DNA from: Actinostola sp. cb2023
Lineage: Eukaryota > Cnidaria > Anthozoa > Actiniaria > Actinostolidae
NCBI GenBank assembly: GCA_033675265.1
Contig: JAUJYZ010000682.1
Location: 1 to 64,000 of the forward strand
DNA: 64,000 nt
Direction of reading: 5' to 3'
Numbering within the stretch: position 1 is the stretch's first letter; each line of letters starts with the position of its first letter. Of this stretch, positions 44,038 through 57,529 are shown piece by piece. The notes beneath the pieces were generated by a model that worked only from the letters and a program-made list of their open reading frames with translations, did not search any database and was not told the origin of the DNA. The position numbers and the translations under genes were made by a program.

Positions 44038-44125
44038 CTAGCCTCCTTAGCAGCCGCCCTTAGTTTCGTCACGCAAGGCTCCCCTCTCCACGGACGTCTG
44101 CTTACTTGAGCGAAACATTCCTTTC
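44038..44125. repeat. Left TIR of the helicase element
   Basis: Complement of 57,442-57,529 with a single mismatch (acgtctgctt here against acgtttgctt). Flanked on the left by GTGCGAG at 44,031-44,037. Confidence 0.96.
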
Positions 44126-44397
44126 CAATTGTAATTGAAAGCCAATCAAAATCGATGTATTGTTTACAAAGGAGCCAATCAAATGCATTGATCATATTTG
44201 GCGCCAACATGAATGAATGAATAATATATTAAACCATGCATGAACGAAGATCGAGGCGCCAAGTCAAGATCGATGCCACATCTTCACTTTATGTATGGAT
44301 CTAAACTTAACTCCAAGAAAAATCGTCCAAGAAAACACAAACTGCTTTCTTTGTGGCGTTGACTTGCCAAATGAAAAACGTGTCAACGTCTTTGGGA

Positions 44398-44490
44398 GAA
44401 GTACTGAAGATATTTCTGGCCTAATGAAGAAGTATTGAAGATATGTCTGGCCTAATGAAGAAGTACTGAAGATATGTCTGGCCTAATAAG
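44398..44490. repeat. 31-bp tandem triplication in DUF6589 exon 1
   Basis: Three units starting gaagtactgaagatat at 44,398, 44,429 and 44,460. Two extra units add 62 bp, so the frame is lost. Frame continuity through a single unit (GRSTEDISGL) shows the ancestral state. Confidence 0.92.
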
Positions 44491-45200
44491 TAGTGCTCTC
44501 GACATCGACGTGAGTGTTTTATATCCGTCAAACTCAAACGTCTTATATATATGCCCGAAGGTCTGCTACAAGCGCTATAAAAAATGTAAAATTTCTCTTC
44601 AAACCACTAAAACTGAGATCGTAGAAGAATTCAAGAAAAAAATGAGCGAACCATAAGAACAAAGTGACTTCGAAAAGCAGACAACAAGGCTAACGACAAC
44701 ACCACAAGCGGAGTCTTTCATCATGAAAGCAATAAACAAAGTCGCGTCGTTAAGGCTTTGGAACTGTATTTCCCTACCACTCAGAGTCTGACTCCTTTGT
44801 CTGCTACTTGTACTTCTTACAACAATGCTGCCTTACCGGCAGTTTCTTGCCAAAATACCATGCTGTTTGACAATTGACATCCACGCCAAAGAAGAGTAAG
44901 AAGTCGAAAGAAAACATCGGATCCGTGAAGATGATCGTTGAATATCCGAGCAAAACTGTTCGTAAGACGTTGAGCCCAGATTACGAAGCCATTGGAAAAG
45001 CTCTTACGTTTGGTTCTACCGAAACCTTGGCCAAAGCTGTCACAAAGAACAAGTTTTTAACGAAGCATGTGGTTGCCAATGTACTGCAGATCGTCTCAAG
45101 GGAAGTCAGTAGTCTTTGCTCGAGATCAAAGCGCTCACTCTTGAGGAAATGTGACAAGAATTTAATCTTTTTGATTGGATCGACGTCAGAAGATTTTGAA

Positions 45201-45750
45201 ATTATTGTCATTGTTTATGTGATAGGTTCTAAACCTTTAGTAAATCTTTACGAACACAGCAAAGTCATCATATAAAAATGGGAACATGTTTCGTCCAAAC
45301 TGTTGGAATCAACCAATTAATATTTCCGGCTTCCGACTCCCTGGGCTGCAGCTCCCAGGGGTTCATAGCGAAATAAACAGTATTTGGTAGGAAAATCCCA
45401 TCAAATGTAAAACGAGCTTCATAAAATGATTTCAATTTTGTATGGAAATTTAACAACAGAATGACTGTAAATCATATTGATTCCTTGTTGCATTCCAAGA
45501 ATCAGTCGACGAAATGAAGTGAGTAGTCGACGTTGTGGTCTTTGTGTTCTTTCGATTGCAATGATCAAATTAGTGTATTTGTAATTGTGAATTTGTTGGC
45601 ATGTTCATGACGTCATTTTCCCGCCAAATAACTAAAAAATCGAAAAACAAAAATGGGAACAGGCTTGTTGTATTAACATGTATTGTCATGTTGCCAAGTT
45701 TCACATTGATTGGATTAACACTGCGAAGTTGTACACAACCCGGTCTTTTT
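45201..45750. other. Intronic or decayed stretch before triplet repeats
   Basis: After the CSRSKRSLLRKCDK block the DUF6589 frame dissolves. The region that normally follows in the copy-1-type protein is not recognisable here. Nothing else is seen. Confidence 0.4.
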
Positions 45751-45751
45751 G

Positions 45752-46352
45752 CAGTAGCAGTAGCAGTAGCAGTAGCAGTAGCAGTAGCAGTAGCAGTAGC
45801 AGTAGCTGTAGCAGTAGCAGTAGCAGTAGCAGTAGCAGTAGCAGTAGCAGTAGCAGTAGCAGTAGCAGTAGTGGTGTGTAGTGGTAGTGGTAGTAGTAGT
45901 AGTAGTAGTAGTAGTAGTAGTAGTAGTAGTAGTAGTAGTAGTAGTAGTAGTAGTAGTAGTTTTGTCTATATTATTACTTATAAAGAAAGTTTAAAACTAC
46001 TACTATTACTACTACTACTACTACTACTACTACTACTACTACTACTACTACTTCACTACTATTATACTACTACTACTACTACTACTACTACTACTACTAC
46101 TACTACTACTACTACTACTACTACTACTACTACTACTACTGCTACACTATTACTACTACTACTAATATACTACTACTACCACTACTACTACTACTACTAC
46201 TAGTACTACTGCTACTACTATTAATAACTACTACTTTGACTACTACTACTACTACTACTACTACTACTACTACTACTACTACTGCTGCTGCTGCTGCTGC
46301 TGCTGCTGCTGCTGCTGCTGCTGCTGCTGCTGCTGCTGCTGCTGCTGCTGCT
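45752..46352. repeat. Compound trinucleotide tract: (GCAGTA)n, (AGT)n, (ACT)n, (GCT)n
   Basis: About 120 bp of mixed GTA/GCA repeats, then about 70 bp (AGT)n to 45,960, a 40-bp gap, (ACT)n blocks at about 46,000-46,140 and 46,235-46,283, and (GCT)n about 23 units to 46,352. AGT and ACT are complementary, so the two halves form one large imperfect palindrome. Confidence 0.97.
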
Positions 46353-54893: not shown

Positions 54894-55294
54894 AAGTGAG
54901 ATAAAAGACAGTGAAATAGTTTTTTGTGTGTGTTTTAGACTTGTTTTATATATGCTTAATTGAGCTGTAATACCTGATTAGCAGCTAATACAAACATGTG
55001 TACATAATATAGATAAATTCAAAATGTTGATGAATGTTTATATTAAATTGTTACTTTCTGTAAGTTAGAACAGTTGTAATGTTTCCCTTTATAGAGTGGT
55101 TTTACTTACATTTGTAAGTAAATAAATATGAATAGTTTGTGACTAATAGTCCATACTAAACAAAAGAAAACTCAATTGCATTATAGTCTACCAGTAACTA
55201 CTAGCTTGCCATTTTTTCATGGGTCAAGTATTTAAAACCACTCCTATAGACCAATGATTAGAGTATGAAAATGTCAGAATGTTACTTTTTACCA
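54894..55294. other. 3' flank of the helicase gene
   Basis: Non-coding AT-rich sequence; contains the likely helicase 3' untranslated region. Nothing else recognised. Confidence 0.4.
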
Positions 55295-57353
55295 TTAGGC
55301 TGTGTTAAATGATTGATTGTCCAGTACATCCATTACAGTTGCAGGGACTTCAGCATTCAATGACTCCTCAAAATCATGTGTTTCATTTGCTGAAATCTCT
55401 AGATGAGATATTGACAAATTTTCAAGAGCCAGCTCAAGAAGAGAGTCATCTTGAATAAGATTATCCCATTCTCCTTTAAAATATTGTAGTTCCAATCCAT
55501 CAGGTTCACTTGATAATAATTCACTTATGCAAGCAGAGTCAATCTCTAACACATCTCCAAACACCTTGTTTACCATTTCCAGAATACTGGCTGCATGTTT
55601 AATATCCCATATCTCCACTTTATTCAAAATGTCTTGTAGTGTGAACATCATATCACAATTATCTAGGACTTGAGTAATTTGGACATCAGAAAATCCAAGA
55701 AGTAGCTGTGGATGTGTAAGGATTTTCAGTTGGTTATTTTTGGACTTGGATATCAAGTTAGATACAAGCGATTTGTGATAGTCTGTTAAATCTTTATATA
55801 GATTCTCCACCTGATCTTGAGTAACCATTCTAGTGCGTATGTTAGGTAAAGCAGGTTTTCCAGAATTTCCAGGAAATTGTGTAAGTTGTACACAATGTTC
55901 ATCCCCACATTGACAAGCAGCTGCACAATTGTCACAGCACAAATGCATTGGTTCAATTGAACTTGAGTGAGAGCAATAATTGGTATCAAAATTCTGTAAA
56001 AGAGTCTTTCGCTCGCCTGCATGTCTTAGTTTTGACATAGTTTTGACATGTTTGTCTACATGGTTGAGTAGAAGTCCCTGATATATCACATAAGCAACAC
56101 TTTGCCTCATATCTCGTCCTGCTGCTCTTCCCGCTCTTCCCTATGTAGGCCTCAATGTTTTTTGAGGGGCCAAAGTGAACAATCCTACTAACTCCTTTAC
56201 AGTCCAACCCCATTCCAAATGCAATTGTTGCAATCAGTACACGAAGACCAGAGTTTTCATTCTGGAATTCGTGTAGTATTGCTTCCTTATTACCAGTTGG
56301 TGTGCACGAGCGCAACATTTCGAGTAAAACATGTCTGGGGTCATTATCATCTGTAAGGAATATGTCATTGCCTAGCAATGCCCTCAATGAAGAGTAAAGA
56401 AGTCCACATTGTTTGATAGTTTGGCAGTATATTATAGTCCTAGTAGTGTTTTGTCTATCTGCCAAAAGTTCATCAATGAGCCATTGAAAATGCTCTTCAA
56501 TATCCTTGTTCTTTGGCATGTAATACACTGAATATGCAACATTCGGTTTGTTAGGACTCTCTGTAATAATGTGTACATCAATGATGGTTTCTTTGGTGTT
56601 TGTTGTGGCTGTCGCGGTCAAGGCAATTATCTTCACAGAATTAGTCAAAGACCTCAGTTCATGTAGCTCTGAATACGTCTCGCGGAATGCTGCCATGTTG
56701 GTGGTGTTTGATGTCCCCCTGTATGTACATCAAATGAAAAGGGTTTCGTCAGAATACATGTTTTAAAGCTTTTATAATATAACGTGTCAAAGTTTACGAC
56801 TCCATGACCATCTGAAAATCTTTGCAAATTCGCCATATAAAACAACACTTTTTAACACGACAAAACCTGAAGTTTATTTTACTTACCATTGTTTTATAAC
56901 GTGTGCCTCATCAACGGCAATAGAGCACAACTTTGAAGAATAAATTTCGCTCCATAAAACTGATCTCCAACGTTCATTATTAAGCCATGATGCTGGCATG
57001 CCATACACGATTGAAAAAGATCCCTGTTCAACTGATTTGGCATCTTGCTCTGATATTTCTGTCAGACTAATGACAGACACGCCAAGTTTCTGAAGCTTGG
57101 AAACTTGATCCTTCATCAAATTTATGAGTGGTGAGACAACCACGACGATGTGCTGAACATCGGTGTATAAGACATCAAAACACACTGGCAAAGCTTGATA
57201 AATCAGCGATTTACCGCATCCAGTGGGGAGATTGACAAAAATATATTGATTTCTGTTGATAAAGACTTATATAGCTTCTTTTTGCTGAGAACTTAGCTCA
57301 GTAATTTTGAATTTATCACATACACGTTTGAACGCTTCGTCAAGGTCCGCCAT
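55295..57353 (-). pseudogene. RecQ-like superfamily 2 helicase, two exons
   Basis: Exon 1 is 57353-56887 (ATG start) and exon 2 about 56725-55295. Motifs: I LPTGCGKSLIYQ, Ia VVVSPLINLMKDQ, II AVDEAHVI, III ALTATATT, IV TIIYCQT, V VLIATIAFGMGLD, then SRIVHFGPS. RecQ helicases unwind DNA 3' to 5' with ATP. A TAA lies near codon 29, before motif I, and a one-base shift falls inside motif VI (GRAGRAAGRD is found in the next frame). After motif VI comes a Cys group (CCDNCAAACQCG) like a RecQ zinc segment, and a C-terminal tail with no HRDC domain recognised. It is convergent with the DUF6589 gene. Confidence 0.88.
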
Positions 57354-57383
57354 TTTGAATATCACCTTTCCCGCGAAATAAGC

Positions 57384-57432
57384 ACCAATCAGCATTTACT
57401 TTCTCGATTCGGGAAAGTAAATGCTGATTGGT
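57384..57432. repeat. Perfect 20-bp hairpin beside the right TIR
   Basis: accaatcagcatttactttc is mirrored around a 9-base loop, 10 bp inside the right TIR and between it and the helicase start codon. Both arms include the accaatca/tgattggt motif. The left end has related ccaatcaa strings at 44,140-44,185 but not the hairpin. Confidence 0.95.
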
Positions 57433-57441
57433 CCATTTCGA

Positions 57442-57529
57442 GAAAGGAATGTTTCGCTCAAGTAAGCAAACGTCCGTGGAGAGGGGAGCCTTGCGTGACG
57501 AAACTAAGGGCGGCTGCTAAGGAGGCTAG
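57442..57529. repeat. Right TIR of the helicase element
   Basis: Complement of 44,038-44,125, one mismatch in 88. Followed by GTGCGAG (57,530-57,536). Confidence 0.96.

What the first reader, a model, noticed from the sequence alone, without database searches (positions are those of the whole stretch)
44038..57529. 13.5-kb helicase-bearing transposon with exact ends and 7-bp target duplication
Seen directly: 88-bp TIRs differing at one base, GTGCGAG outside both ends, and a RecQ-like helicase convergent with a DUF6589 gene. Known, from memory: the Academ superfamily has a helicase-bearing lineage (AcademH) with RecQ-like helicases in animals and fungi. Inferred: the DUF6589 protein is the transposase of this element, which would give a role to an otherwise uncharacterised domain. 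The 7-bp (perhaps 8-bp) duplication is a concrete diagnostic.
Basis: partly seen in the sequence, partly recalled or inferred. Interest (0 to 1): 0.9.

Follow-up and report, generated by a model that had tools for sequence, protein, structure and literature searches.

The report
Helicase-carrying jumping gene in sea anemone
A 13.5-kb DNA transposon with matching inverted ends carries two decayed genes, a probable transposase and a DNA helicase; related copies in the same sea-anemone genome show the same layout, mostly duplicate nine bases where they land, and some appear to have jumped recently.

Summary
The element is real: a transposon at window 44039-57528 with 87-bp inverted ends that differ at one base, a split DUF6589 gene and a convergent RecQ-family helicase gene. 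Two details change. The ends lie one base further in on each side, and the target duplication is 9 bp (GGTGCGAGC), not 7. Of 24 paired copies at different sites in the same genome (probably the sea anemone Actinostola sp. cb2023), 15 have exact 9-bp duplications and 3 have 9 bp with one mismatch; 0 of 552 mismatched control pairs do. Of 50 DUF6589 places, 44 have a helicase within 12 kb, all 44 convergent. AcademH is reported to make 9-10 bp duplications, so the element is best filed there, with the DUF6589 protein as its transposase. D-D-E candidates are conserved, but two structure predictions failed and no Academ protein was available to compare. The window copy is broken in both haplotypes. 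A sister subfamily has three 7.04-kb copies, 2-9 substitutions apart, at different sites with different 9-bp duplications, so it moved recently. This is a new member of a known kind, with a useful assignment for an uncharacterised domain.

The parts
44030..44038 (.). left target-site duplication GGTGCGAGC (9 bp)
   Evidence: identical to 57529-57537; 14 other copies also have an exact 9-bp duplication
44039..57528 (.). whole transposon, 13,490 bp, ends TAGCC...GGCTA
   Evidence: ends set by other copies
44039..44125 (+). left terminal inverted repeat, 87 bp
   Evidence: 88 nt with the outer C that belongs to the duplication; one mismatch
44964..45158 (+). DUF6589-gene exon match, N-terminal (P0001 residues 94-158)
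   Evidence: tblastn E 4.7e-19, 63% identity
46491..47093 (+). DUF6589-gene exon match with FDNND; candidate catalytic D codon 46764-46766
   Evidence: tblastn 52% to P0001 239-443; column D in 14/14 rows; codons read
47351..47587 (+). DUF6589-gene exon match with GDQL (candidate catalytic D codon 47477-47479) and EWHA
   Evidence: Pfam DUF6589 E 2.3e-5; tblastn 65%; column D in 13/14 rows
50601..51131 (+). DUF6589-gene exon match with CX4C...HX3H zinc-finger-like motif (read by eye)
   Evidence: Pfam E 1.3e-3; tblastn 55%
52932..53514 (+). last DUF6589-gene exon match, with a frame break near 53030; EHSN candidate catalytic E codon 53155-53157
   Evidence: Pfam E 5.1e-8; tblastn 54-67%; column E in 13/14 rows
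55295..57353 (-). RecQ-family helicase gene (matches 56013-56771 and 56847-57353 plus an open frame to 55295), frame shift at motif VI, in-frame stop at 57267-57269
57442..57528 (-). right terminal inverted repeat, 87 bp
57529..57537 (.). right target-site duplication GGTGCGAGC (9 bp)

Best explanation
It is an inactive copy of a cut-and-paste DNA transposon of the AcademH type. Shown: a 13.49-kb unit with 87-bp TIRs; a 9-bp target duplication; two convergent genes, a DUF6589 protein and a RecQ-family helicase; the same gene pair at many places of the genome; and a sister subfamily with near-identical copies at different sites. Inferred: the DUF6589 protein binds the TIRs and makes cuts staggered by 9 bases with a D-D-E active site (candidates FDNID, GDQL, EHSN), and the element-encoded helicase opens or processes ends or gaps during the reaction.
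For: TIRs and 9-bp duplication at the window locus. 24 paired elements at different sites: 15 exact 9-bp duplications, 3 of 9 bp with one mismatch, 1 exact 8 bp, 1 of 8 bp with one mismatch, 1 of 9 bp with three mismatches, 3 without; 0 of 552 left/right pairs from different elements have one mismatch or fewer at 9. 44 of 50 DUF6589 places have a RecQ-like helicase within 12 kb, 44 of 44 convergent and downstream, against about 0.4% expected per place. C555:251703-261934 has exon matches of both genes without stops and duplication AGTTTAATT. C831, C1330 and C1386: 7.04-kb copies 2-9 substitutions apart with duplications CAGCAAATC, CTGTTGAGG and CAGTGCAAC. AcademH is reported to make 9 or 10 bp duplications (PMC10045372 passage). 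Candidate D, D, E columns 14/14, 13/14, 13/14.
Against: No Academ or AcademH protein could be compared; the defining paper (Kojima 2020) is not held. Both AlphaFold models are too poor to show any fold (mean pLDDT 54.7 and 42.9), and the fold search with the better one gave no match at E <= 0.001. Many other residues are as conserved as the three candidates. 6 of 50 DUF6589 places lack a scored helicase and 27 of 71 helicase places lack a scored DUF6589 match (only the best candidates were scored, and at least two of the 27, the window and C135, do hold DUF6589 exons). 3 of 24 paired elements show no duplication. No empty site was read; the searches for it did not complete.
Confidence: 0.84

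Rival explanations
1. It is a Kolobok-superfamily element carrying a RecQ helicase; Kolobok lineages with RecQ exist, one with the helicase on the complementary strand.
For: [quoted passage not shown] Kolobok-1_CCri encodes one on the complementary strand.
Against: The duplication is 9 bp with varied sequence; Kolobok targets TTAA (recalled). DUF6589 is the one Pfam family that all 13 scanned homologues match; the next reaches 3 of 13, weakly.
Confidence: 0.04
2. It is a helicase-bearing superfamily of its own, whose transposase is unrelated to Academ, that converged on a RecQ helicase and a 9-bp duplication.
For: No sequence comparison with Academ was possible; no held paper contains the word DUF6589, and PF20231 returned four papers that by title and start of abstract concern other fields (listing only).
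Against: Helicase, host in the animals and 9-bp duplication coincide with what is reported for AcademH (passage; title of Kojima 2020 seen in reference lists).
Confidence: 0.07
3. DUF6589 is a passenger or accessory protein; another protein of the element is the nuclease.
For: Catalysis and fold are not shown.
Against: In the 7.04-kb C831 copy the four longest stop-to-stop frames are the helicase (620 aa) and three frames that lie on the DUF6589 exon matches (453, 220, 169 aa); shorter frames were not examined. Three acidic columns are nearly invariant.
Confidence: 0.05

Closest known systems
AcademH lineage of the Academ superfamily (Kojima 2020, seen only as cited in PMC10045372, PMC10799480 and PMC8290104; paper not held)
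   Same: DNA transposon in an animal, encodes a helicase, 9-bp duplication (reported 9 or 10 bp)
   Different: No difference established, because the transposase sequence could not be compared. One copy here (C1019) shows 8 bp.
AcademX lineage of Academ
   Same: Same superfamily as AcademH, if this is AcademH
   Different: PMC10045372 gives it a nuclease and 3-4 bp duplications. Here the duplication is 9 bp, and no nuclease family was among the Pfam hits of the 8 frames scanned
KolobokH and Kolobok-1_CCri
   Same: DNA transposons with a RecQ helicase (PMC9587614 passages)
   Different: Kolobok duplicates TTAA (recalled); here 9 bp of varied sequence
Pfam PF20231 (DUF6589)
   Same: 13 of 13 scanned homologues match, best E 1.5e-41
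   Different: Pfam gives no function; here it is tied to a mobile element with defined ends

Membership tests
AcademH | encodes a helicase | tested here: met
   RecQ family, (recQ_fam E 3.7e-52, below the curated cut-off); helicase beside 44 of 50 DUF6589 places
AcademH | 9- or 10-bp target-site duplication | tested here: met
   9 bp at the window locus; 15 of 24 exact, 3 of 24 with one mismatch, none of 24 with 10 bp; definition from PMC10045372
AcademH | Academ-type DDD/E transposase sequence | not testable with these tools
   no Academ protein or Repbase profile available; Kojima 2020 not held
AcademH | RNase H-like fold with three acidic residues (recalled as general for DDD/E transposases) | tested here: inconclusive
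   models with mean pLDDT 54.7 and 42.9; conserved D/D/E columns only
AcademH | terminal inverted repeats (recalled) | tested here: met
   87 bp in the window; 90, 89, 90 and 76 bp in C430, C1019, C504 and C831; an 84-bp inner match in C555
AcademX | 3-4 bp duplication | tested here: not met
   9 bp
Kolobok | TTAA duplication (recalled) | tested here: not met
   9-bp duplications of varied sequence
Helitron | no TIRs and no duplication, Rep/HUH plus helicase (recalled) | tested here: not met
   TIRs and duplication present; no Rep/HUH family among the Pfam hits of 8 frames

The most novel reading that the evidence does not exclude
DUF6589 is the catalytic transposase of helicase-bearing Academ elements. 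A C831-type family in this anemone is still able to move. The helicase-assisted reaction recurrently leaves TIR-to-TIR palindromic remnants of 59-118 bp, each with its own junction, which would be a mechanistic signature of the lineage.
Probability: 0.25. Interest if true: 0.7.

Novelty: new member of a known kind. Interest (0 to 1): 0.45.

Why it matters
It ties an uncharacterised protein family (DUF6589) to a transposon with exact ends, and gives a reproducible diagnostic (TAG ends, 9-bp duplication, convergent RecQ gene). It also points to near-identical copies without stops in the matched exons, which would make the open question of what a transposon-encoded helicase does in DDE-type transposition directly testable in cell culture.

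Tried and rejected
A 7-bp or 8-bp duplication at the window locus: rejected, because other copies fix the ends one base further in and the flanks then match over exactly 9. The 10.2-kb C1416 unit as a second full copy: rejected, because only its ends match the window and its longest frames read as reverse transcriptase and tyrosine recombinase by eye. C135 as an independent copy: rejected, because its flanks are those of the window (98.7% identity over 18.5 kb), so it is the other haplotype or a duplicate. Structure route: two predictions and one fold search gave nothing usable. Relatives in other collections: none confirmed in viral contigs with one exon (13 pattern matches) or with A2 (164 pattern matches), none in genome contigs with A2 (187 pattern matches). 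Literature: no held paper has the word DUF6589; PF20231 gave four listings from other fields; 'Actinostola' with 'genome' and 'transposable elements' gave none; 'AcademH' gave seven, of which I read passages of PMC10045372, PMC10799480 and PMC8290104; PMC9587614 and PMC12730594 were also read in passages, and the latter had no Academ in its main text.
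Full report
OBSERVATION. The inverted repeat is at the stated place: arms 44038-44125 and 57442-57529, 88 nt, one mismatch at position 61. GTGCGAG flanks both arms. I ran no shuffle test; an 88-nt inverted repeat with one mismatch, 13.3 kb apart and with a shared flank, is far beyond chance by inspection. Plus-strand frames match Pfam DUF6589 in three separate pieces, and minus-strand frames match DEAD and Helicase_C. Joined, the helicase pieces match recQ_fam at E 3.7e-52, below NCBI's curated cut-off for that model (177.7 against 219.8 bits). 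RecQ-family chains (RECQ1, BLM, WRN, RecQ) are the best sequence matches in the PDB for the Helicase_C frame.

CORRECTED ENDS. The first 103 bases searched against the window's own genome (424 Mb, 1594 contigs) gave 48 arm matches, with 40 of 117 candidates scored. I read 36 stretches covering the other listed places. With ends read as TAGCC...GGCTA the flanks of most pairs match over exactly 9 bases. In the window this gives GGTGCGAGC at 44030-44038 and 57529-57537.

TALLY (which repeats and adds five elements). 24 paired elements at different sites; the C135 copy is the window's own site and is not counted again. Exact 9 bp: 15 (window, C1416, C555, C831, C1330, C1386, L013, L017, L018, L019, L020, L021, L036, L037, L038). 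9 bp with one mismatch: 3 (L011, L023, L040). Exact 8 bp: 1 (C1019). 8 bp with one mismatch: 1 (L012). 9 bp with three mismatches: 1 (C430). None: 3 (L016, L022, C504). No element shows 7 or 10. Left out: 17 stretches with no second arm and C627, whose right end was not at the predicted place. Control: of 552 left/right pairs from different elements, 0 have one mismatch or fewer at 9 bases; at 8 bases 1 has, so L012 may be chance.

THE TWO GENES GO TOGETHER. The best homologue of the DUF6589 protein is an uncharacterised Acropora palmata protein (P0001, E 9.1e-220); others come from Nematostella, Actinostola and Stylophora. P0001 against the genome gives 63 exon matches (51 of 634 candidates scored). 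I used 50 places that hold a match to the C-terminal part; the other 13 rows are further exons at those places. A coral helicase homologue (P0113) gives 96 matches (71 of 1067 candidates scored), used as 71 places, the other 25 rows being further pieces near them. 44 of the 50 DUF6589 places have a helicase within 12 kb; all 44 are downstream and on the opposite strand, gaps 291-8920 bp; about 0.4% would be expected per place by chance. The 50 places are not all independent: some have identical scores and are probably haplotigs or duplicates (for example C430 and C1567; C920, C444, C568 and C64). Six places lack a scored helicase, and 27 of 71 helicase places lack a scored DUF6589 match; at least two of those 27, the window and C135, do hold DUF6589 exons. 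Outside this genome, three pairs of DUF6589 and helicase proteins in the search tables (102 and 120 listed rows, the latter of 7990 hits) share a contig length (594823, 8133 and 353949 bases), which suggests but does not prove shared contigs.

STATE OF THE WINDOW COPY. C135 (reverse strand) is 98.7% identical over 18.5 kb and carries the element at the same site, with a further 7.84-kb insertion at window 57263 inside the helicase gene. Both share the broken last exon of the DUF6589 gene and the frame break at helicase motif VI. The copy is therefore broken on both, although its TIRs differ at one base.

LIVE-LOOKING RELATIVES. C555:251703-261934 has DUF6589 exon matches and a two-exon helicase match without stops, and AGTTTAATT on both sides. 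C831:330140-337175 is 7,036 bp with 76-bp identical TIRs, a 620-aa open helicase frame and DUF6589 exon matches without stops. C1330 and C1386 are 7,041 and 7,043 bp; the three differ pairwise by 2-9 substitutions and 6-9 gap columns, with flanks that do not resemble each other and duplications CAGCAAATC, CTGTTGAGG and CAGTGCAAC. Different duplications rule out haplotigs of one insertion. This is recent movement; present activity is inferred only.

HOST. Contig C555 is 489,232 bases long, the same as the contig of P0003 (Actinostola sp. cb2023, QZH41_011928), and the displayed blocks of C555 and P0003 agree except at the last residue of one block. Actinostola is a sea anemone genus. I take the window to be from that assembly.

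MECHANISM. Shown: mobility as a unit with TAG ends and, as a rule, a 9-bp duplication, and two co-travelling genes. Inferred: a D-D-E transposase in the DUF6589 protein. On P0001 numbering D334 (FDNID) is conserved in 14 of 14 rows, D485 (GDQL) in 13 of 14 and E808 (EHSN) in 13 of 14, with the exceptions P0002 (V) and P0008 (G). Other residues are as well conserved (for example H355, W519, H520), so conservation alone does not single out a triad. The C2H2-like motif between D485 and E808 is a candidate end-binding part. The helicase may open the ends or process the gap; PMC10045372 links the 9-10 versus 3-4 bp duplications of AcademH and AcademX to helicase versus nuclease (passage). Structure prediction did not help: mean pLDDT 54.7 and 42.9, with the regions of the three candidates mostly below 50, and the PDB fold search found nothing at E <= 0.001.

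PLACE AMONG KNOWN THINGS. AcademH is the only helicase-bearing lineage I can recall with a 9-10 bp duplication. Kolobok lineages also carry RecQ, one on the opposite strand (PMC9587614 passages), but duplicate TTAA (recalled). The Academ transposase sequence could not be compared, so membership rests on helicase, TIRs and duplication. No held paper has the word DUF6589; that says nothing about subscription journals or databases.

MINI-ELEMENTS. Eleven copies are 59-118 bp and consist of two TIR starts joined head to head. Ten of the eleven have a 9-bp duplication (nine exact, one with a mismatch; L022 has none). The junctions differ in every copy; in 7 of 11 one arm stops at TIR position 41-43 while the other is shorter. 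The seven single-arm stretches that share one flank also stop at position 42 (counted by eye). One reading is an 84-bp palindromic ancestor that suffers deletions at its centre; another is interrupted gap repair after excision. I cannot separate these.

One search was added after the report was first drafted; it split off L012 (8 bp with one mismatch) from the 'none' group and widened the control from 342 to 552 pairs. Confidence in the main reading was set from 0.86 to 0.84 so that it and the rivals sum to one; no fact required it.

Noticed in passing
C656, C377, C441, C1311, C532, C788, C813, C18, C790, C585, C1510 (L013, L017-L022, L036-L038, L040): TIR-to-TIR mini-elements of 59-118 bp, each with its own junction, ten of eleven with a 9-bp duplication (one of them with a mismatch); in 7 of 11 one arm ends at TIR position 41-43 and the other is shorter.
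   Followed up: partly
C135:13667-21505 (L045, L046); similar frames at window 1784-5287, 10596-11888, 59218-59823 (by eye): A 7.84-kb insertion in the helicase gene of the other haplotype, with inverted ends of more than 50 bp read by eye and frames containing DNAGCYH...FSDPQGGKG. Two of its frames gave only weak Pfam hits (best Cdc6_C E 0.0059, below cut-off); four similar window frames gave none at E <= 0.01.
   Followed up: partly
C1416:429511-439728 (L048, L049): Element with the same TIR ends and duplication GCACGTAGC whose interior holds frames that read by eye as reverse transcriptase and tyrosine recombinase, perhaps a DIRS-like insertion.
   Followed up: no
C1508, C1433, C1566, C1404, C1196, C820, C701 (L033, L034, L039, L041-L044): Seven stretches with nearly the same flank (tacatagactacta, small changes in some) and 42 bases of the TIR followed by GATATAAAAC: a repeat that contains or has captured one TIR end.
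   Followed up: partly
window 45751-46364: About 600 bp of trinucleotide-like and GCAGTA repeats between two exon matches of the DUF6589 gene; the distance between those exons is 39 bp shorter in C135.
   Followed up: no
window 15067-18648: Retrotransposon with reverse transcriptase (RVT_1 E 3.8e-31) and a frame that reads like an integrase by eye.
   Followed up: no
window 21641-24647: THAP domain (E 1.1e-12) followed by a weak MULE-like transposase match (E 3.1e-4, below cut-off): perhaps another DNA transposon.
   Followed up: no
C831 flanks (L062, L063): The young 7.04-kb element sits in a frame that reads by eye like a DDE transposase gene of another family (DNCGFHHG, YSPH).
   Followed up: partly
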